Origin: Propioniciclava coleopterorum
Lineage (GTDB): Bacteria; Actinomycetota; Actinomycetes; Propionibacteriales; Propionibacteriaceae
Length of the DNA stretch: 64,000 nucleotides
NCBI RefSeq assembly: GCF_011393335.1
Contig: NZ_CP049865.1
Span: 248,001-312,000 of the forward strand
Direction of reading: 5' to 3'
Every line of letters starts with the position of its first letter. The first letter of the stretch is position 1. The translations under genes were made by a program, and so were the position numbers. This document shows positions 43,176 to 51,224 of this stretch, one piece after another. Under the pieces are notes generated by a model. It saw nothing but the letters and a program-made list of their open reading frames with translations. It ran no database searches and had not been told where the DNA came from.

Positions 43176-44546
43176 TCAGGCCGCGGCGGCCTCCAGCTCG
43201 CGGGCCAGCGCCAGGATCGACTCCCGGGCGCCGGCGTCGTCGATGCCGAGGTAGTCGGACGCCTTCGCCACCGACTCCTCCAGCGTCCCGGCGCCGATGG
43301 ACGCGACCACGTCGGCCTTGGCGTCGTTGACCGGGGCGCCCAGACCGCGGGTGTGCAGCACCCAGGCGGCGACCGCCCGCTCGGCGCCGATGGGCTCGCC
43401 GCCCGCGGCGCGTTCCGCGTTCAGCGCCGGGACGATGCGGATCGGGATCTTCACCGAGCCGTCGGCGGCGATGCGGGAGAGCTGGTCCTTCATGCGCGGG
43501 TTGCCGAAGCGCTCCAGCAGCGCGGCGCGGTAGGCGTCCACCTCGGCGGCGGGCAGCGGCAGGTGCTTGGCGGCGACGTCCCACCACTGATCGACCCACC
43601 CGGCCACCACCGGGTCGCTGATCGCCTCGTAGACGGTCGGACGCCCGACGATGGTCGCCGCGTACGCCATCAGCGAGTGCGAGCCGTTGAGCAGCCACAG
43701 CTTGCGCAGTTCGTGCGGGGTGATGTCGTCGACGAACTGGACGCCGGCGTCCTCCCACGCGGGGCGTCCGGCCTTGAAGTCGCCGGCGATGACCCACTCG
43801 GTGAACGGCTCGGTGGCCACCGCGGCGGGGTCCTCGATGCCCCGGTCGGCGGCCAGCGCTTCGCGGGCCTCCTCGGAGATCGACGGGGTGATCCGGTCCA
43901 CCATCGTCGTCGCGAACCCGACGTTGTCGGCCATCCAGTCGGACAGGGTGGGGTCCACGGCGGCGGCCAGCGAGGTGAGGACGCCCGCGACCATGTGGCC
44001 GTTGTCCGGGACGTTGTCGCCGGGCAGGAAGGTGATCGGGCCGGCGCCGGCCTCGCGGCGCGCCAGCAGGCCGGCCACGAACTTGCCGGGGGCGGTGGTC
44101 ACCGCGGTGAGGTCGCCGGCCTTCAGGGCGGCCACGTCGGCCTGCACGGCCTCGGCGCTCAGGTCCACGCCGCCGTCGGCGCCGGGCAAGTAGCCCGCCT
44201 CGGTGATCGTGGAACTGACGATGGCGACCGCGGGGTCGCGGAAGTACTCGACGAACCGGGCGACGTCGCTGCCGCTGTGCGTGGCCGAGATCGCGCTGAT
44301 CACCTCGTAGTCGTTGCCCTCGGGGTTCTGCACGATGAGCTCGTACAGGCCGTCCTGCTCGGCCATGGCCTCGGCCATCGCCACCGAGCGTCCGGTGAAG
44401 GCGGCGATCCCCCACTGTGCGGCGTCCGGCGCCTTCTCGGTGTACATGGCCTCGTGGGCGCGGAAGAAGTTGCCCAGACCGAGATGGACGATGCGGACGG
44501 GTGCGGCGGGCCGGCCGTCCTGGGCGCGGGTGAGTCGACGGGTCAC
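43176..44546 (-). CDS. uxuB: mannitol dehydrogenase family oxidoreductase, probable fructuronate reductase
   Basis: A 456-residue NAD(P)-dependent enzyme of the long-chain mannitol dehydrogenase family. The nucleotide-binding start is VRIVHLGLGNFFRAHEAMY, and the catalytic K-x5-N-x2-H pattern appears as RKLWLLNGSHSLMAY. The family includes mannitol, mannonate (UxuB) and altronate (UxaB) oxidoreductases. I assign fructuronate reductase because glucuronate isomerase is in the same locus. It starts at GTG with AGAAAGG upstream. It is divergent from a LarA-family gene, with a 147-bp gap holding GGCAAC half-sites also found before the regulator and uxaC. UxaB remains possible. Confidence 0.82.
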   Translation of the reverse strand: MTRRLTRAQDGRPAAPVRIVHLGLGNFFRAHEAMYTEKAPDAAQWGIAAFTGRSVAMAEAMAEQDGLYELIVQNPEGNDYEVISAISATHSGSDVARFVEYFRDPAVAIVSSTITEAGYLPGADGGVDLSAEAVQADVAALKAGDLTAVTTAPGKFVAGLLARREAGAGPITFLPGDNVPDNGHMVAGVLTSLAAAVDPTLSDWMADNVGFATTMVDRITPSISEEAREALAADRGIEDPAAVATEPFTEWVIAGDFKAGRPAWEDAGVQFVDDITPHELRKLWLLNGSHSLMAYAATIVGRPTVYEAISDPVVAGWVDQWWDVAAKHLPLPAAEVDAYRAALLERFGNPRMKDQLSRIAADGSVKIPIRIVPALNAERAAGGEPIGAERAVAAWVLHTRGLGAPVNDAKADVVASIGAGTLEESVAKASDYLGIDDAGARESILALARELEAAAA

Positions 44547-44638: not shown

Positions 44639-44652
44639 GGCAACCGGTGGCC
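44639..44652. promoter_or_regulatory. candidate operator before the LarA-family gene
   Basis: GGCAACCGGTGGCC is a near-palindrome with one mismatch against the perfect GGCAACAAGTTGCC found before the lacI-type gene. It lies 41 bp before the LarA-family start. A further GGCAACCGAT half-site follows at 44660. Confidence 0.5.
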
Positions 44653-44693: not shown

Positions 44694-45977
44694 GTGACGC
44701 AGCACATCGCCCCACCCGTCGACACCATCGGCGGGCCGCACCTCACCGTGAGCGATGCCGAGTTGGACGCCTTCGTCGCCCGGAACTTCGCGGAGGTCGA
44801 CTTCGACGGCAAGCGCGTCGTGCTGGTGGTGCCCGACGGCACGCGCAGCTGCCCCCTGCCGCTGCTGCTGCGCACCGTGCACCGCCACCTGATCGACCGG
44901 GTCGCGTCCCTCACCACGGTGATCGCCCTGGGCACCCACTCCTACATGGAGCCCGACGAGATCGACGCGTGGTTCGGCGTCGAGGCGGGCAGCACGCTCG
45001 CCGACACCTACCCCGGCATGACCGTGGTGAACCACGAGTTCCTCGACCACGACAAGGTCGTCACCCTCGGCACGCTCACCGCGGACGAGATCTCCGTGAT
45101 GACCGACGGCATGGTCGCCGAGGACGTCGTGGTCGAGATGAACCGGTACGTCGCCGAGGCCGACATCAACCTGGTGATCGGCCCGGTCTTCCCCCATGAG
45201 GTCGTCGGCATCTCCGGCGGCAACAAGTACTTCATCCCGGGCTGCAGCACCCACGACGCGATCGACCTGTCGCACTGGGTGGGCGCGCTCATCGGCCTGG
45301 AGACCATGATCGGCACGCCGGGCATCACCCCGGTGCGGGCGATCATCGACGCCGGTTCGGCGATGATCCCCGGCCTGCGGCTCGCGCTCTGCCTGGTGGT
45401 GCAGTCCGGCTCCGGGGAGATCGAGTCGGTCTCGTTCGGCACCAGCGAGGAGTCCTGGGCAGCCGCCGCCGACGTGGCGTCGCAGACCCACGTGGTGTAC
45501 GTCGAGGAGCCGTTCAAGAAGGTCATCGCGATGATGCCGACCCGCTACGACGACATCTGGACCGCCGCCAAGGGCTGCTACAAGATGCAGCCCGCGATGG
45601 CCGACGGCGGCGAGGTGATCATCTACGCCCCGCACGTCACCGAGGTGTCCGAGCAGCACCCCGAGATCTACGACATCGGCTACCACTGCATCGAGTACTT
45701 CACCAAGCAGTGGGAGAAGTTCTCCCACCTGCCCAAGGGCGTCCTGGCGCACTCGACCCACGTGCGCGGCACCGGCACCTACGACCCGGACACCGCCACG
45801 GAGCACAACCGGATCAAGGTGACGTTGTGCACCCAGATCCCCGAAGAGGTCTGCGCCTCGGTGAACCTCGGCCACCTGGCCCTGGAGGACGCCGACTTCG
45901 ACGCCTGGAACGCCGACCCCGACGTCTTCGTCCAGGAGAACGCCGGCGAGGTGCTGTACCGCCTCAAGACCGACTGA
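44694..45977 (+). CDS. LarA superfamily (nickel-pincer) racemase/epimerase, candidate aldonate 2-epimerase
   Basis: A 427-residue protein of the lactate racemase (LarA) superfamily. Residues matching the known LarA active site are present at close spacing: Arg51 in VPDGTRSC, His82 in ALGTHSYMEP, His168 in FPHEVVG, Lys178 in GISGGNKYFIPG (the lysine that carries the nickel-pincer cofactor) and His194 in DLSHW. The 10- and 16-residue spacings around Lys178 equal those of LarA H174-K184-H200. Some LarA homologues epimerise D-gluconate at C2. Next to UxuB- and UxaC-type enzymes, D-mannonate/D-gluconate interconversion is a reasonable guess. GTG start with AGGAGG. LarB, LarC and LarE are not in the window. 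Confidence 0.85.
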   Translation: MTQHIAPPVDTIGGPHLTVSDAELDAFVARNFAEVDFDGKRVVLVVPDGTRSCPLPLLLRTVHRHLIDRVASLTTVIALGTHSYMEPDEIDAWFGVEAGSTLADTYPGMTVVNHEFLDHDKVVTLGTLTADEISVMTDGMVAEDVVVEMNRYVAEADINLVIGPVFPHEVVGISGGNKYFIPGCSTHDAIDLSHWVGALIGLETMIGTPGITPVRAIIDAGSAMIPGLRLALCLVVQSGSGEIESVSFGTSEESWAAAADVASQTHVVYVEEPFKKVIAMMPTRYDDIWTAAKGCYKMQPAMADGGEVIIYAPHVTEVSEQHPEIYDIGYHCIEYFTKQWEKFSHLPKGVLAHSTHVRGTGTYDPDTATEHNRIKVTLCTQIPEEVCASVNLGHLALEDADFDAWNADPDVFVQENAGEVLYRLKTD

Positions 45978-46006: not shown

Positions 46007-46110
46007 CCCCGTCCCGAGCACGAACACAGGCTCGATCGAGCACGACGAGCGCACCGCCCGGCGTCGCGGCCCACAGGCGAGCGCACCGCCCCGGGGGTCG
46101 CGGTCCGCCG

Positions 46111-46348
46111 CGATGGCCCACCAGCGCGCCGAGACGGCGCACCCGGCTGCCAGGCGACTGATCCATGGACCGGGCTCTCGGGACGGAACATCAACAACGG
46201 CGCACTCGCGCCCCGAATCCCCGGCATCCGCCCTTGTGGAGTCTCCGCAGATCGGCGCGAGTGCGCGATTCTTGATTTTCCTCGGTGGACAGCACCGAGA
46301 CGGCCGGGCCCCTGGAGAGGTCGAAGCGTTCGGGTGTTCGCACAGCCG
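46111..46348. repeat. structured direct repeat, copy 1 (~238 bp)
   Basis: First of two adjacent, diverged direct copies. The best kept part (46185-46281) is a large inverted repeat: GGAACATCAA and GCACTCGCGCC on the left pair with GGCGCGAGTGC and TTGATTTTCC on the right, around a conserved 41-nt loop containing CCGAATCCCCGGCAT and GCCCTTGTGGAGT. The inner 11-bp stem is perfect. Open frames run through it on both strands but show no protein family, so I read it as non-coding. Confidence 0.7.
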
Positions 46349-46587
46349 CGACGGCCCACCAGGGCGCCGCGACTGCGCACCGGGCCGCCAGGAAGGGATG
46401 CCGCGCCCGGGCTCTTGGGGCCGGAAATCAACAACGACGCACTCGCGCCCCGAATCCCCGGCATTTGCCCTTGTGGAGTTCCGCAGATCGGCGCGACTGC
46501 GCGATTCTTGATTTTCCTCGGTGGACAGCACCCCAGACAGCCCCGGCCGGCTGCAGGCGAAGCGTTCGGTGTCCGCACAGCCCGGGA
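46349..46587. repeat. structured direct repeat, copy 2 (~238 bp)
   Basis: Second copy, directly after the first. The hairpin core is 46423-46517: GGAAATCAA and GCACTCGCGCC pair with GGCGCGACTGC (one mismatch) and TTGATTTTCC. The outer stem is better here than in copy 1, while the inner stem is better in copy 1. Loop bases are mostly kept. The pattern suggests a mobile or duplicated palindromic element or a structured RNA. Confidence 0.7.
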
Positions 46588-46916: not shown

Positions 46917-47924
46917 TCAGGCGGCCGGTCCCGTGGACTGGCGGACGATCAGGCGCACCGGGACCAGGACGGGGCCCGTCTCGGGCGACTTGTGACCCGT
47001 CAGGGTCGCGGTGATGTACCGGACGGCCGAGTCCCCCAGCATCGTCAGCGGGGCCGCCACCGTGGTGAGGCCGGGCGTGACGAGCGCGGACGCGAAGATG
47101 TTGTCGAAGCCCACCACGCTGACCTGCTCGGGCACCTTGATGCCGCGCTCGGACAACCCCTGCATCAGCCCGATGGCCATCAGGTCGTTGAAGCACAGCA
47201 CCGCCTTGAGCCGGCGGGCCGCGATCACCTCGGCGGCGCCGCGGCCGCCCTGCAGCGTGGGCGCGAACGGCCCGACGCGGTGCTCGGTGAAGCCCAGCTC
47301 CCGCGCGGACTCCCGCACGGCGCGCCAGCGCATCCCGTCGGCCCAGGACGCCTCGGGCCCGGCCAGGTAGGTGATGTTGCGGTGCCCCAGCGCCAGGAGG
47401 TGCTCGGCGGCCTTGCGGACGCCGTGGGCCATGTCCGGGACGATGCAGTGCAGCCCGGACACGCGCCGGTTGAGGATGACCACCGGCAGCGACTTGGCCA
47501 GGGTCCGCAGTTCGGTGTCCGACAGGCGGGAGCTCGCGATGATGAGGCCGTCCAGCAGCGGCAGCGAGCGGCGCAGCATCTCGCGCTCCAGCGCCTCCGA
47601 CTCCTGCGCGTCGTTCAGCGTCACCACGAAACCGGCCTCCGCCGCGGCGGCCTGACAGCCCCGGATCACCCGGAAGTTGAACGGGTTGGTGATGTCGGCC
47701 ACGGCGAGCCCCAGCACCTTGGTGGTCGTCTTCGCCGCGGCGCGGGTGACCTCGCGGCTCCGGTAACCCAGCTCCTCGGCGACCTGCCGGATCCGCTCCG
47801 CCGTCTGGGCGCTCACGCGGCCGGGGCGGGAGAAGGCTCGGGACACGGTCGACGGGCTCACCCCGGCGACGCGCGCCACGTCATAGATCGTTGCATCCGA
47901 CCCCGTGCCCGCCTCATTGACCAT
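46917..47924 (-). CDS. LacI family regulator of the hexuronate locus
   Basis: A 335-residue regulator. The helix-turn-helix is at residues 11-37 (TIYDVARVAGVSPSTVSRAF), with the hinge near REVTRAAAKTTTK and the effector domain from VLGLAVADITNPFNFRVIRG. ATG 47924 has a -10 box seven bases upstream and a perfect GGCAACAAGTTGCC palindrome just behind it, so autoregulation is likely. The same half-sites occur before uxuB/larA and before uxaC/gnd. A uronate or aldonate effector is inferred from the locus. Confidence 0.92.
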   Translation of the reverse strand: MVNEAGTGSDATIYDVARVAGVSPSTVSRAFSRPGRVSAQTAERIRQVAEELGYRSREVTRAAAKTTTKVLGLAVADITNPFNFRVIRGCQAAAAEAGFVVTLNDAQESEALEREMLRRSLPLLDGLIIASSRLSDTELRTLAKSLPVVILNRRVSGLHCIVPDMAHGVRKAAEHLLALGHRNITYLAGPEASWADGMRWRAVRESARELGFTEHRVGPFAPTLQGGRGAAEVIAARRLKAVLCFNDLMAIGLMQGLSERGIKVPEQVSVVGFDNIFASALVTPGLTTVAAPLTMLGDSAVRYITATLTGHKSPETGPVLVPVRLIVRQSTGPAA

Positions 47925-47944: not shown

Positions 47945-47958
47945 GGCAACAAGTTGCC
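47945..47958. promoter_or_regulatory. palindromic operator before the hexuronate lacI-type gene
   Basis: GGCAACAAGTTGCC is a perfect 14-bp palindrome seven bases upstream of the -10 box. The extended left flank GCAAGTTGGCA is repeated before uxaC at 49593-49603. Confidence 0.65.
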
Positions 47959-48069
47959 CCGCCGTTCGGGCAAGTTCGCGGGTCGAGTTTGGCCCCCGCG
48001 CCGGGTTCGGGGCCCCGTCCGGACGGGCACGGATCCATGGAGGCCCGGGACGGCGTCCGGGGAACGAGA

Positions 48070-48113: not shown

Positions 48114-49538
48114 TCAGACCTCGAGGTTGAACGCCTTCTTGGGCAGGTCCACCACGAACTGGGTAGCCAGGTCCTCGGCCTCGTCGATCTCGAGGCGGTG
48201 CTGGACGACCAGGTTCGCCAGGTACGCCGAGTCGATCCGGCGGGCCAGGTCGTGCCGGGCCGGGATCGACATGAACGCGCGGGTGTCGTCCACGAAGCCG
48301 GTCGTCTTGTAGAAGGTGCCGTACTCGGTCACCGACGAGCGCCAACGCATGATGGCGTCGGGGGCGTCGATGAACCACCACGGCGGGCCCACGTAGACCG
48401 ACGGGTAGAACCCGGCGAGCGGGCCGACCTCGCGGCTGTAGACCGTCTCGTCCTGGCCGAACAGGATCACCCGGAAGTTCGGGTTGGTCCCGAACGCGTT
48501 GAGCATGGGACGCAGCGACTCCACCGTCTCGAACGCGACCGGGATGTCGCCGCCGACGTCGGCGCCGAAGCGGTCGAACGTGGCCTGGTGATGGTTGCGG
48601 GCCACGGCCGGGTGCAGCGTCATGACGAGGCCGTCCTCGGACGCCATCCGCGCCATCTCGAACATGAACGTGCGGCGCAGCGCGTCGGTCTCCTGCGCGC
48701 TCGCCTCGCCGCGGCGGGCGCGGGCGTAGACGGCCTCGGCCTCGTCGGCGGGCAGCGGCTGCGTGCCCAGGTCCATGTGGGCGTGGTCGCTGGACACCGC
48801 ACCCATGCTCTTGAAGAACTGCCGACGGTTCTCCATGGCGGCGACCCAGCCGGCGAAGGTGTCGGTGTTCTCCCCCGACTTCTCGCCCAGGGCGTCGATC
48901 AGGTCGTTCCAGCCGTCGCGTCCGGCCTCGAGGTACTTGTCGGGGCGGAACGTCGGGACGATCGTGGTCGCGACCGAGTCGTCGGCGGCGAGCGTGGCGT
49001 GGTGCTCCAGGTCGTCCAGCGGGTCGTCGGTGGTCGCCAGGAACGAGATGTTGAACTGGTCCAGCAGCGCGCGCGGCTTGAAGGCGTCCGTGGCGAGCTT
49101 GGCGTTGATCGTGTCGTAGATCTCGTCGGCGTTCTCGGCCGAGGGGCGCTGGTCGATGCCGAAGATGTCGACGAGCTCCATCTCCATCCAGTACTTCATC
49201 GGCGTCCCGCGGAACAGCTCGTAGTGCGAGGAGAAGATGCGCCAGGCCTCGCGGGCCTGCTCCTCGGTGAAGTCCGTGCGACCCACCGGCACGCCGAGAT
49301 CGGCGAGGTCGACGCCCTGGCCGTGCAGGATGCGGTTCACGTAGTGGTCGGGCGTGAGCAGCAGGTCGGTGGCGTTCTTGAAGGGGATGTCGTCGGCGAT
49401 CCAGACCGGGGGCACGTGCCCGTGCGGCGAGATGATCGGGAGGTCCTTGACTTGCTCGTAGAGCTTGCGTGCGACCGCGCGCGTCTGCGGCTCTGCAGGG
49501 AACAGGCGGTCCGGGTGGAGGGTCAACGGCTGCTTCAT
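48114..49538 (-). CDS. uxaC: glucuronate isomerase
   Basis: A 474-residue enzyme that isomerises D-glucuronate to D-fructuronate or D-galacturonate to D-tagaturonate, the entry step of hexuronate breakdown. Family segments include PLTLHPDRLFPAEPQTRAVA, PIISPHGHVPPVWIADD with the HxH-like metal site, and YPSVYVGPPWWFIDAPDAI near the end. Length is normal. ATG 49538 is used because upstream codons lack homology. It is divergent from the 6-phosphogluconate dehydrogenase gene, with operator-like repeats between them, and belongs with the UxuB-like and LarA-family genes. Confidence 0.95.
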   Translation of the reverse strand: MKQPLTLHPDRLFPAEPQTRAVARKLYEQVKDLPIISPHGHVPPVWIADDIPFKNATDLLLTPDHYVNRILHGQGVDLADLGVPVGRTDFTEEQAREAWRIFSSHYELFRGTPMKYWMEMELVDIFGIDQRPSAENADEIYDTINAKLATDAFKPRALLDQFNISFLATTDDPLDDLEHHATLAADDSVATTIVPTFRPDKYLEAGRDGWNDLIDALGEKSGENTDTFAGWVAAMENRRQFFKSMGAVSSDHAHMDLGTQPLPADEAEAVYARARRGEASAQETDALRRTFMFEMARMASEDGLVMTLHPAVARNHHQATFDRFGADVGGDIPVAFETVESLRPMLNAFGTNPNFRVILFGQDETVYSREVGPLAGFYPSVYVGPPWWFIDAPDAIMRWRSSVTEYGTFYKTTGFVDDTRAFMSIPARHDLARRIDSAYLANLVVQHRLEIDEAEDLATQFVVDLPKKAFNLEV

Positions 49539-49606: not shown

Positions 49607-49618
49607 GGTTGCGCAACC
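49607..49618. promoter_or_regulatory. candidate operator between uxaC and gnd
   Basis: GGTTGCGCAACC is a perfect 12-bp palindrome with a central CG, 69 bp before the uxaC start. It is followed by CGATTTC, much like GCAACCGATCTC before the LarA-family gene. GCAAGTTGGCA lies just to its left and GGTTGGCAATC to its right. Confidence 0.55.
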
Positions 49619-49763
49619 GATTTCCCACCGGTTGGCAATCAGTGACCGACGGGGGTGCTTTCGGGCAAGATGGGGGTGATACAGCGCGCGGATCGGGCGT
49701 CCGGGTCGGACGACGCCCTCCGTGCCTGGCGTTCCATCACCGACAAGAAGGACACCCACTTTC

Positions 49764-51224
49764 ATGAGCGAGAAGACTGGCAGCGCCCAGATCGGCGTCA
49801 TCGGCATGGCCGTCATGGGCTCCAACCTGGCGCGCAACTTCGCCAACCACGGGTACCGCACGGCGATCTACAACCGCACCTGGGCCAAGACCGAGGCGGT
49901 CGCCAAGGATCACCCCGAGGCCAACTTCATCGCGTCGGAGGACCTGGGCGAGTTCGTGGACTCCCTGGAGAAGCCCCGCCGCATCGTCATCATGGTCAAG
50001 GCGGGCGCCGGCACGGACGCCACGATCGACGCGCTCATCCCGCTGCTGGAGCCGGGCGACATCGTCGTCGACGGCGGCAACGCGTTCTTCCAGGACACCC
50101 GCCGCCGCGAGGAGAAGCTGCGCGCGCACGACCTGCACTTCGTCGGCGCGGGCATCTCCGGCGGCGAGACCGGCGCGCTCGAGGGTCCCTCGATCATGCC
50201 CGGCGGCTCGCCGCACTCCTACGAGTACGTCGGCAAGATGCTGGAGGACATCTCCGCCAAGGTCGACGGCCCGAACGGCGAGGAGCCCTGCTGCACCTAC
50301 ATCGGCACCGACGGCGCCGGCCATTTCGTCAAGATGGTCCACAACGGCATCGAGTACGCCGACATGCAGTTCATCGGCGAGGCCTACGACCTGCTCAAGG
50401 GCGCCGGGCTGTCCGCCGCTGAGGCCGCCGACGTCTTCGCCCAGTGGAACACCGGCGACCTGGACTCCTACCTGATCGAGATCACCTCCGAGGTGCTGCG
50501 CCAGACCGACGCCGAGACCGGCAAGCCGCTCGTCGACGTGATCGTGGACGCCGCCGGCATGAAGGGCACCGGCACCTGGACCGTGCAGGAGGCCCTCAAC
50601 CTGGGCGTCCCCGCGGCCGCCATCGCCGAGGCCGTGTTCGCCCGCGCCGCGTCCTCCAGCCCCGAGCTCCGCAAGGCCGCCGAGGCCGCGCTGACGGGTC
50701 CGGACGGCGTCGTCGAGGTCGAGGACCGGGCCGCGTTCGTCGAGGACGTCCGGCAGGCGCTGTGGGCGTCCAAGGTCATCGCCTACGCCCAGGGCCTGCA
50801 CCTGATCAAGGTCGCCGCCAAGGACTACGGCTGGGACATCGACGTGGCCGCGGTCGCCCGCATCTGGCGCGCCGGCTGCATCATCCGCGCCAAGCTGCTG
50901 GACCGCATCGCCAACGAGTACGCCGCCGGCAACCTCGAGACGCTGCTCGAGGCCCCGTCCATCGCGTCCGGCCTGGCCGAGTCCAACCCGGCGTGGCGCC
51001 GCGTCGTGGCCAAGGCCACGCTGGCGGGCGTCCCGATCCCGGGCTTCAGCTCGGCGCTGTCCTACTACGACCTGGTCCGCGCGCCCCGCACCAACGCCGC
51101 GCTGACCCAGGGCCTGCGCGACTTCTTCGGGTCGCACACCTACCGCCGCGTCGACAAGGAAGGCACCTTCCACACCGTGTGGTCGGGTGACCGCTCCGAG
51201 GTCAACGCCGAGGACACCCACTGA
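49764..51224 (+). CDS. gnd: 6-phosphogluconate dehydrogenase (decarboxylating)
   Basis: A 486-residue enzyme that converts 6-phosphogluconate to ribulose 5-phosphate with reduction of NADP. The nucleotide-binding start is IGVIGMAVMGSNLARNFANH. The substrate motif is GAGISGGETGALEGPSIMPG, and the catalytic lysine lies in GHFVKMVHNGIEYADM. GSHTYRRVDKEGTFHTVW is the typical C-terminus. ATG 49764 has AAGAAGGA upstream. Divergent from uxaC; in the proposed uronate route it would use 6-phosphogluconate made from gluconate. No gluconokinase gene is in the window. Confidence 0.96.
   Translation: MSEKTGSAQIGVIGMAVMGSNLARNFANHGYRTAIYNRTWAKTEAVAKDHPEANFIASEDLGEFVDSLEKPRRIVIMVKAGAGTDATIDALIPLLEPGDIVVDGGNAFFQDTRRREEKLRAHDLHFVGAGISGGETGALEGPSIMPGGSPHSYEYVGKMLEDISAKVDGPNGEEPCCTYIGTDGAGHFVKMVHNGIEYADMQFIGEAYDLLKGAGLSAAEAADVFAQWNTGDLDSYLIEITSEVLRQTDAETGKPLVDVIVDAAGMKGTGTWTVQEALNLGVPAAAIAEAVFARAASSSPELRKAAEAALTGPDGVVEVEDRAAFVEDVRQALWASKVIAYAQGLHLIKVAAKDYGWDIDVAAVARIWRAGCIIRAKLLDRIANEYAAGNLETLLEAPSIASGLAESNPAWRRVVAKATLAGVPIPGFSSALSYYDLVRAPRTNAALTQGLRDFFGSHTYRRVDKEGTFHTVWSGDRSEVNAEDTH

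What the first reader, a model, noticed from the sequence alone, without database searches (positions are those of the whole stretch)
44694..45977. LarA homologue with active-site spacing preserved but a divergent substrate region
Arg51, His82, His168, Lys178 and His194 line up with the LarA residues R75, H108, H174, K184 and H200; two of the spacings (10 and 16 residues) are identical. The cofactor motif reads SGGNKYFIPG in place of SGGRKS, and the stretch between the first two histidines is about 20 residues longer. This points to a working nickel-pincer enzyme with a different substrate.
Basis: partly seen in the sequence, partly recalled or inferred. Interest (0 to 1): 0.55.

Follow-up and report, generated by a model that had tools for sequence, protein, structure and literature searches.

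The report
Nickel-pincer sugar-acid epimerase in glucuronate cluster
This gene encodes a nickel-cofactor enzyme that most likely flips one carbon of a sugar acid (mannonate to gluconate) so that glucuronic acid can be used through the pentose phosphate pathway; it is a relative of enzymes already known, not a lactate racemase.

Summary
Window 44694-45977 (+) encodes a 427-aa LarA homologue with the cofactor and catalytic residues in register (D48, R51, H82, H168, K178, H194, K293). The "divergent substrate region" is not new: it is that of the known D-gluconate 2-epimerases (GntE). By sequence (205 vs 33 bits), fold (Z 48.9 vs about 33) and tree it goes with GntE2 of Thermotoga maritima, not with lactate or malate racemases. 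Its neighbours are uxaC, a UxuB-like dehydrogenase, a LacI regulator and gnd. In 90 related loci, nearly all actinobacterial, this set recurs, with beta-glucuronidase, gluconokinase-like kinases and larB/C/E. Mannonate dehydratase (PF03786) was found in 1 of 49 named carrier genomes. Best explanation: a D-mannonate/D-gluconate 2-epimerase that lets glucuronate enter the pentose phosphate pathway. Loose ends: this genome has UxuA elsewhere and no gluconokinase was recognised in it; the assayed actinobacterial GntE1 has KM 120 mM for D-mannonate, so the native substrate is unproven. New member of a known kind; modest interest.

The parts
44694..45977 (+). LarA homologue, predicted NPN-dependent D-mannonate/D-gluconate 2-epimerase (GntE-type), 427 aa
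43176..44546 (-). long-chain mannitol dehydrogenase family, UxuB-like, predicted fructuronate reductase; divergent from larA
   Evidence: Pfam Mannitol_dh; NCBIfam D-arabinitol dehydrogenase 257.4 and fructuronate reductase 234.6 bits, both below cut-offs; PDB 1lj8 mannitol dehydrogenase 225.8 and 4im7 211.2 bits
46917..47924 (-). LacI-family regulator (longest ORF starts at 48038; the start at 47924 is my gene caller's choice)
   Evidence: Pfam LacI and Peripla_BP_3; start
48114..49538 (-). uxaC, uronate isomerase (longest ORF starts at 49628)
   Evidence: Pfam UxaC 283.6 bits; NCBIfam PRK02925 541.3 bits, cut-off 387; start
49764..51224 (+). gnd, NADP-dependent 6-phosphogluconate dehydrogenase (longest ORF starts at 49722)
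   Evidence: NCBIfam TIGR00873 631.6 bits, cut-off 426.7; start
44639..44652 (.). candidate LacI operator GGCAACCGGTGGCC between uxuB and larA
   Evidence: 1 mismatch to GGCAANCGNTTGCC
47945..47958 (.). candidate LacI operator upstream of lacI, if lacI starts at 47924
   Evidence: 2 mismatches
49612..49625 (.). candidate LacI operator between uxaC and gnd, if uxaC starts at 49538
   Evidence: 2 mismatches

Best explanation
The gene encodes a nickel-pincer-nucleotide (NPN) enzyme of the GntE type that interconverts D-mannonate and D-gluconate by inverting C2. NPN made by LarB, LarE and LarC (genes elsewhere in the same genome) would be bound through K178, with H194 ligating nickel; H82 and H168 act as acid/base on the C2 hydroxyl, a hydride moves to the cofactor, a 2-keto acid forms and is re-reduced on the other face. 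In the pathway, UxaC turns glucuronate into fructuronate, the UxuB-like dehydrogenase reduces it to D-mannonate, this enzyme makes D-gluconate, and a kinase plus Gnd carry it into the pentose phosphate pathway without mannonate dehydratase or the KDPG route. Shown here: residues, fold, clade, gene neighbourhood, cofactor genes, rarity of UxuA in carriers. Inferred: the chemistry (from LarA), the substrate, the flux. Unresolved in this genome: which kinase acts on gluconate.
For: Closest solved chain by sequence is 4nar, T. maritima GntE2 (205.1 bits; lactate racemase 2yjg 32.6). AlphaFold model pLDDT 94.2, pTM 0.91: 4nar Z 48.9, 2.0 A over 404 aa, 32% id; Isosphaera broad-spectrum LarA 34.9; LarA 5huq 33.0; Mar2 27.4. 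GntE signature E,V,A,H from PMC11770544 (passage) found as E169, V170, A352, H353, invariant in the 42-sequence alignment. Tree of 81 rows: 69 clade members plus 4nar on one side, three other PDB chains and 8 other actinobacterial LarAHs on the other, SH-aLRT 99, with long-branch warnings. Neighbours within 9 kb in 90 loci: LacI 49, UxuB-like 48, UxaC 46, LarE 32, LarB 27, LarC 21 (23 with a small cluster named by eye), beta-glucuronidase 20, Gnd 17, FGGY kinase 15, GPH transporter 9 (names). UxaC in 14 of 17 strong carriers against 33 of the other 279 genomes. UxuA in 1 of 49 named carrier genomes searched and 1 of 17 carriers in the class sample. LarB, LarE, LarC adjacent in the own genome and over their cut-offs. 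Shared palindrome upstream of larA in 34 of 88 loci, UxaC 25 of 49, beta-glucuronidase 11 of 20, Gnd 6 of 17.
Against: No activity test. The own genome has a full-length UxuA beside a TRAP transporter and KDPG-aldolase-family genes, so mannonate could leave the classical way; T. maritima, where GntE2 was assayed, also has UxuA (controls), so having GntE does not mean UxuA is replaced. No gluconokinase recognised in the own genome: TIGR01313 none; FGGY hits weak, those scanned classed as xylulokinase, glycerol kinase or unassigned. 5 of 17 carriers lack both gluconokinase types tested. The UxuB-like protein is below every specific cut-off. C. glutamicum GntE1 has KM 120 mM for D-mannonate and its discoverers suggested another native substrate (PMC7583248). 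30 of 90 loci show none of UxaC, UxuB, beta-glucuronidase nearby (some contigs are short). The palindrome was found before 0 of 16 FGGY kinases and 0 of 28 LarB, and its genome-wide count in the own genome is not above its control (9 against 18).
Confidence: 0.77

Rival explanations
1. Same NPN epimerase chemistry, but the native substrate is another uronate-derived acid: an aldarate (D-glucarate/D-mannarate, as suggested for C. glutamicum GntE1), D-altronate, or glucuronate itself at C5.
For: KM of GntE1 for D-mannonate is 120 mM and its discoverers proposed uronic or aldaric acids. The own genome has a glucarate-dehydratase-like gene (746 bits, cut-off 828.7) followed by a KDPG-aldolase-family and a KDG-kinase-like gene, and one operator-like site lies shortly before an ABC-transporter gene upstream of them. 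The reductase could make altronate rather than mannonate; its specificity is unresolved.
Against: Recurrent partners are UxaC, a UxuB-like reductase, FGGY kinases that score best as gluconokinase, and Gnd, which fit an aldonate that ends as 6-phosphogluconate. No glucarate dehydratase is among the 10 neighbour clusters whose representatives I scanned; most small clusters were not named. The operator site may be chance.
Confidence: 0.16
2. In this species the enzyme runs backwards: D-gluconate to D-mannonate, then UxuA, KDG kinase and KDPG aldolase, because a gluconokinase is missing.
For: UxuA, KDPG-aldolase-family and KDG-kinase-like genes present; no gluconokinase recognised.
Against: The two nearest species with the same cluster, P. 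flava and P. soli, gave no UxuA match, so the conserved cluster does not depend on it. The cluster holds uxaC, which feeds mannonate, and gnd adjoins it. Absence of a gluconokinase rests on two searches only.
Confidence: 0.05
3. Lactate or other short-chain hydroxyacid racemase.
For: LarA superfamily membership and conserved catalytic residues.
Against: F175/F176 of LarA are E169/V170; 55.5 bits against a 460 cut-off for NCBIfam lactate racemase; tree and fold place it with GntE2.
Confidence: 0.01

Closest known systems
GntE2 (LarAH20), T. maritima D-gluconate 2-epimerase, PDB 4nar
   Same: Fold (Z 48.9), NPN and catalytic residues, Glu after the catalytic His, Trp in helix 11, Ala-His in helix 14, longer stretch between the first two His; gnd in its operon (PMC3750489 passage)
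   Different: 31-32% identity; Val170 for Ser156, Ala292 for Gly286; UxaR (GntR family) rather than a LacI regulator beside it; a different phylum
GntE1 (LarAH19), Corynebacterium glutamicum
   Same: Actinobacterial; uronic-acid gene context; G2E activity reported (PMC7583248, passages and one section)
   Different: Its sequence was not in hand, so identity was not tested; KM for D-mannonate 120 mM. An uncultured Corynebacterium homologue (L069) is 53% identical to the window protein
Rodionova et al. 2012 proposal of mannonate to gluconate (gntE) in Thermotoga
   Same: Same pathway idea
   Different: Seen only as cited in PMC6978723 and PMC3750489 (passages); there it is proposed for galacturonate; the original is not held
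Lactobacillus suebicus mannonate kinase plus 6-phosphomannonate 2-epimerase (PMC6978723, passages)
   Same: Also links the uronate isomerase route to 6-phosphogluconate
   Different: Phosphorylation comes first; genes unidentified; the word nickel does not occur in the paper's main text
LarA lactate racemase
   Same: Cofactor and catalytic residues, overall fold
   Different: Residues after the catalytic His, clade, scores

Membership tests
LarA superfamily (NPN enzymes) | Cofactor-binding R75, K184, H200 of LarA | tested here: met
   R51, K178, H194, invariant in the 42-sequence alignment
LarA superfamily (NPN enzymes) | Catalytic D72, H108, H174, K298 of LarA | tested here: met
   D48, H82, H168, K293, invariant in the 42-sequence alignment
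LarA superfamily (NPN enzymes) | LarB, LarC, LarE in the same genome | tested here: met
   L038 7911-10868 = G000:C1 69910-72867, all over cut-offs
LarA superfamily (NPN enzymes) | Bound NPN and nickel | not testable with these tools
   needs protein
GntE, D-gluconate 2-epimerase | Signature E, V, A, H at LarA F175, F176, W358, T359 | tested here: met
   E169, V170, A352, H353; the last two were placed through 4nar A351/H352, not against LarA directly, since the LarA stretch in hand ends before them. PMC7583248 instead equates W358 with N348 of GntE2, which is G349 here
GntE, D-gluconate 2-epimerase | Nearest fold and clade are GntE2 | tested here: met
   the tree carries long-branch warnings and used aligned stretches of the PDB chains
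GntE, D-gluconate 2-epimerase | Converts D-mannonate to D-gluconate | not testable with these tools
   needs an assay
GntE, D-gluconate 2-epimerase | Gluconokinase available in the genome | tested here: inconclusive
   none recognised in the own genome; found in 12 of 17 carriers by one of two tests
NCBIfam NF052594 NPN_18_hexonate | Score at or above the 500-bit cut-off | tested here: not met
   168.5 bits, best of 6 families
LarA lactate racemase (NCBIfam NF033504) | Score at or above the 460-bit cut-off | tested here: not met
   55.5 bits
LarA lactate racemase | Phe-Phe after the catalytic His | tested here: not met
   E169-V170
Malate racemase (NCBIfam LarAH6 and LarAH5 families) | Score at or above cut-offs 500 and 462 | tested here: not met
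   93.2 and 78.5 bits

The most novel reading that the evidence does not exclude
This clade is a nickel-dependent D-mannonate 2-epimerase that stands in for mannonate dehydratase across Actinomycetota: a LacI regulon (operator GGCAANCGNTTGCC) of beta-glucuronidase, uxaC, uxuB, the epimerase and gnd routes glucuronides to 6-phosphogluconate, making growth on glucuronides nickel-dependent. It would settle the open native substrate of LarAH group 19. In the full-text library I found no paper stating this: 'nickel-pincer' + 'glucuron' gave 0 papers; 'gnte' + 'mannonate' + 'glucuronate' gave 2 (PMC6978723, read in passages; PMC7953866, seen only in the listing); 'mannonate' + 'gluconate' + 'epimerase' + 'lara' gave 3. 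Subscription papers are mostly not covered.
Probability: 0.5. Interest if true: 0.5.

Novelty: new member of a known kind. Interest (0 to 1): 0.35.

Why it matters
It gives a concrete, testable substrate for a branch of the nickel-pincer superfamily whose native substrate was left open. If right, glucuronide use in many Actinomycetota depends on nickel and runs without mannonate dehydratase, a pathway that would look incomplete if only the classical enzymes are sought (inference).

Tried and rejected
Rodionova 2012: not held. Direct placement of C. glutamicum GntE1: not achieved. Pfam Lar_N did not ring in the C. glutamicum control genome although UxaC, LarC and TIGR01313 did; strain or sensitivity unknown, but Lar_N did match the uncultured Corynebacterium homologue L069 (81.7 bits). 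Finding the gluconokinase through the LacI operator: 9 sites with up to 1 mismatch in the genome, fewer than the 18 of the reversed control; in the 3-kb loci around them I saw no kinase, judging the called proteins by eye. The class-sample test of UxuA among UxaC-positive genomes (1 of 14 carriers against 11 of 33 non-carriers) gives Fisher p 0.077 alone; adding the 26 named searched genomes with UxaC on the locus gives 2 of 40 against 11 of 33, p 0.002. These sets may share genomes, relatedness is not controlled, completeness of the named genomes was not told, and enolase-superfamily mannonate dehydratases were not searched. NCBIfam group 18 membership and lactate racemase rejected on cut-offs. 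Literature searches (1 and 5 papers, listings only) gave nothing to the point.

Of the 90 kept, one (L062) is labelled Acidobacteriota, and in two (L074, L126) the LarAH call was a fragment. L050 and L124 carry identical proteins, so at least one genome may count twice. For the tree, 84 of the 90 were at least 395 aa; I thinned 15 of these, and of 13 other LarAHs used 8 (L029 a fragment; L022, L023, L025, L030 without a frame). For one search I gave 50 of the 80 named loci, mostly isolates. Only 12 of the 30 possible permutations of the half-site were run as motif controls.

Full report
What is there. Window 44694-45977 (+) is a 427-codon gene with a GTG start. Pfam Lar_N matches at 1.9e-20. 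The nearest proteins in named genomes are from Propioniciclava flava (87% in the best segment) and P. soli (79%), so the window most likely lies in Propionibacteriaceae, in a 3.67-Mb single-contig genome at C1:248001-312000.

All five are where stated, and two more catalytic residues are present. Aligned with LarA (2yjg): D48/D72, R51/R75, H82/H108, H168/H174, K178/K184, H194/H200, K293/K298; aligned with GntE2 (4nar): D38, R41, H73, H154, K164, H180, K287. R41, K164 and H180 are those the GntE discoverers named as cofactor residues (PMC7583248, passages). The 20-residue expansion between the first two histidines is mostly shared by GntE2 (81 residues, against 86 here and 66 in LarA). All seven residues are invariant in the 42-sequence alignment.

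What it is. The best solved relative by sequence is 4nar at 205.1 bits; lactate racemase 2yjg scores 32.6. NCBIfam's best is the putative hexonate epimerase model NPN_18 at 168.5 bits, below its 500 cut-off; lactate racemase scores 55.5 against 460. All 42 members of the alignment match the hexonate model at E up to 0.001, but also four other LarA-superfamily models. AlphaFold on that alignment gave pLDDT 94.2 and pTM 0.91. Superposition: 4nar Z 48.9, 2.0 A, 404 residues; Isosphaera racemase 34.9; holo-LarA 5huq 33.0; malate racemase 27.4; Foldseek also ranks 4nar first. A quick tree of 81 rows put 69 clade members plus 4nar on one side and the LarA, Isosphaera and Mar2 chains with eight other actinobacterial LarAHs on the other, SH-aLRT 99, with long-branch warnings. 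The published GntE signature E, V, A, H (PMC11770544, passage) reads E169, V170, A352, H353 here; the register of the last two rests on 4nar.

The surroundings. On the minus strand lie a UxuB-like dehydrogenase (43176-44546), a LacI regulator and uxaC; on the plus strand, gnd. I called genes in 97 loci and kept 90 with a clear LarAH. Within 9 kb: LacI 49, UxuB-like 48, UxaC 46, LarE 32, LarB 27, LarC 21 (23 if a small cluster, named by eye, is added), beta-glucuronidase 20, Gnd 17, FGGY kinase 15, GPH transporter 9. 60 of 90 have UxaC, UxuB or beta-glucuronidase; 40 have both UxaC and UxuB; 36 have a cofactor gene; 29 have Gnd or the FGGY kinase, 25 of these together with a uronate gene. Cluster names come from one or two representatives each. 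The FGGY representative scores best with gluconokinase (347.7 bits) but under its cut-off of 648.55; the beta-glucuronidase, LarB, LarE, LarC, Gnd and UxaC representatives pass theirs; the UxuB-like one does not.

Presence and absence. In 296 genomes of the class, 30 have any match, 17 of them strong (E below 1e-100). UxaC is in 14 of those 17 and in 33 of the other 279 (Fisher p 5e-10). UxuA over its cut-off is in 16 of 296, and in 1 of 17 carriers, the window's own genome. In 49 named carrier genomes, UxuA matched in one, Nakamurella lactea. The KDPG-aldolase family is not found in 9 of 17 carriers. A gluconokinase is found in 12 of 17: TIGR01313 over cut-off in 8, an FGGY relative of 46-55% identity in 4 more. 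These patterns fit the epimerase as a bypass of mannonate dehydratase, though UxuA is uncommon in this class anyway.

Regulation. A palindrome GGCAANCGNTTGCC (up to 2 mismatches) lies between 250 bases upstream and 40 bases inside the start of LarAH in 34 of 88 loci; 12 permuted motifs gave 0 to 7 of 90. Other genes: UxaC 25 of 49, beta-glucuronidase 11 of 20, LacI 20 of 54, Gnd 6 of 17, UxuB 9 of 52, LarE 4 of 34, LarC 2 of 26, LarB 0 of 28, GPH 1 of 11, FGGY 0 of 16, unnamed genes 37 of 991. I derived the motif from the same LarAH upstream regions, so the LarAH count, and that of genes sharing its intergenic region, is partly circular. Of six sites in the 64-kb window, three fall in this cluster's intergenic regions, two of them only with my choice of start codons.

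The cofactor. LarB, LarE and LarC sit together at G000:C1 69910-72867, outside the window, over NCBIfam cut-offs. No second Lar_N match was found in the genome, so the cofactor genes presumably serve this enzyme.

How it works. From LarA chemistry (recalled, and as summarised in PMC11770544): transient oxidation of C2 by hydride transfer to the cofactor, a 2-keto acid, return on the other face. For D-mannonate the intermediate would be 2-keto-D-gluconate and the product D-gluconate. This is inferred, not shown.

What does not fit. The own genome has UxuA next to a TRAP transporter and a GntR regulator, with no UxuB-like gene that I could see among the called neighbours, KDPG-aldolase-family and KDG-kinase-like genes, and no recognised gluconokinase. 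P. flava and P. soli gave no UxuA match, so UxuA looks like an addition to an older epimerase route, but this is inference. T. maritima itself has both GntE and UxuA (controls). The high KM of GntE1 for D-mannonate remains unexplained. The dehydrogenase's specificity is unresolved by sequence.

Known or new. The reaction, cofactor, fold and pathway idea are published: proposed by Rodionova 2012 (seen only as cited), assayed for GntE1 and GntE2 in PMC7583248 (passages and one section) and for a third GntE in PMC11770544 (passages). PMC7583248 already notes that group 19 has a uronic-acid context. This protein is most likely a member of that group or close to it; I could not test that directly. 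What I add is the recurrent regulon with gluconate-side enzymes and the near absence of mannonate dehydratase in carriers.

Noticed in passing
window 46107-46582: A unit of about 237 bp is present twice in tandem (about 85% identical) between larA and lacI, in no called gene; elsewhere I compared only a few stretches of this genome and three related loci and saw no other copy.
   Followed up: partly
L039 7771-12728 (G000:C1 2263770-2268727): uxuA lies with DctM, DctQ and DctP transporter genes and a GntR regulator, in a genus where the two nearest species gave no UxuA match.
   Followed up: partly
L160 2152-3665 (G000:C1 2872651-2874164): Glycerol kinase reads as two overlapping frames (368 and 158 aa), as if frame-shifted or mis-sequenced.
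   Followed up: no
L168 1501-1514 (G000:C1 135775-135788): An operator-like palindrome shortly before an ABC-transporter permease gene, upstream of glucarate-dehydratase-like, KDPG-aldolase-family and kinase genes; may be chance.
   Followed up: no
L157 1579-3012 (G000:C1 42078-43511): FGGY kinase of unassigned substrate between a short-chain dehydrogenase and a FAD-linked oxidase; a candidate for the missing gluconokinase.
   Followed up: no
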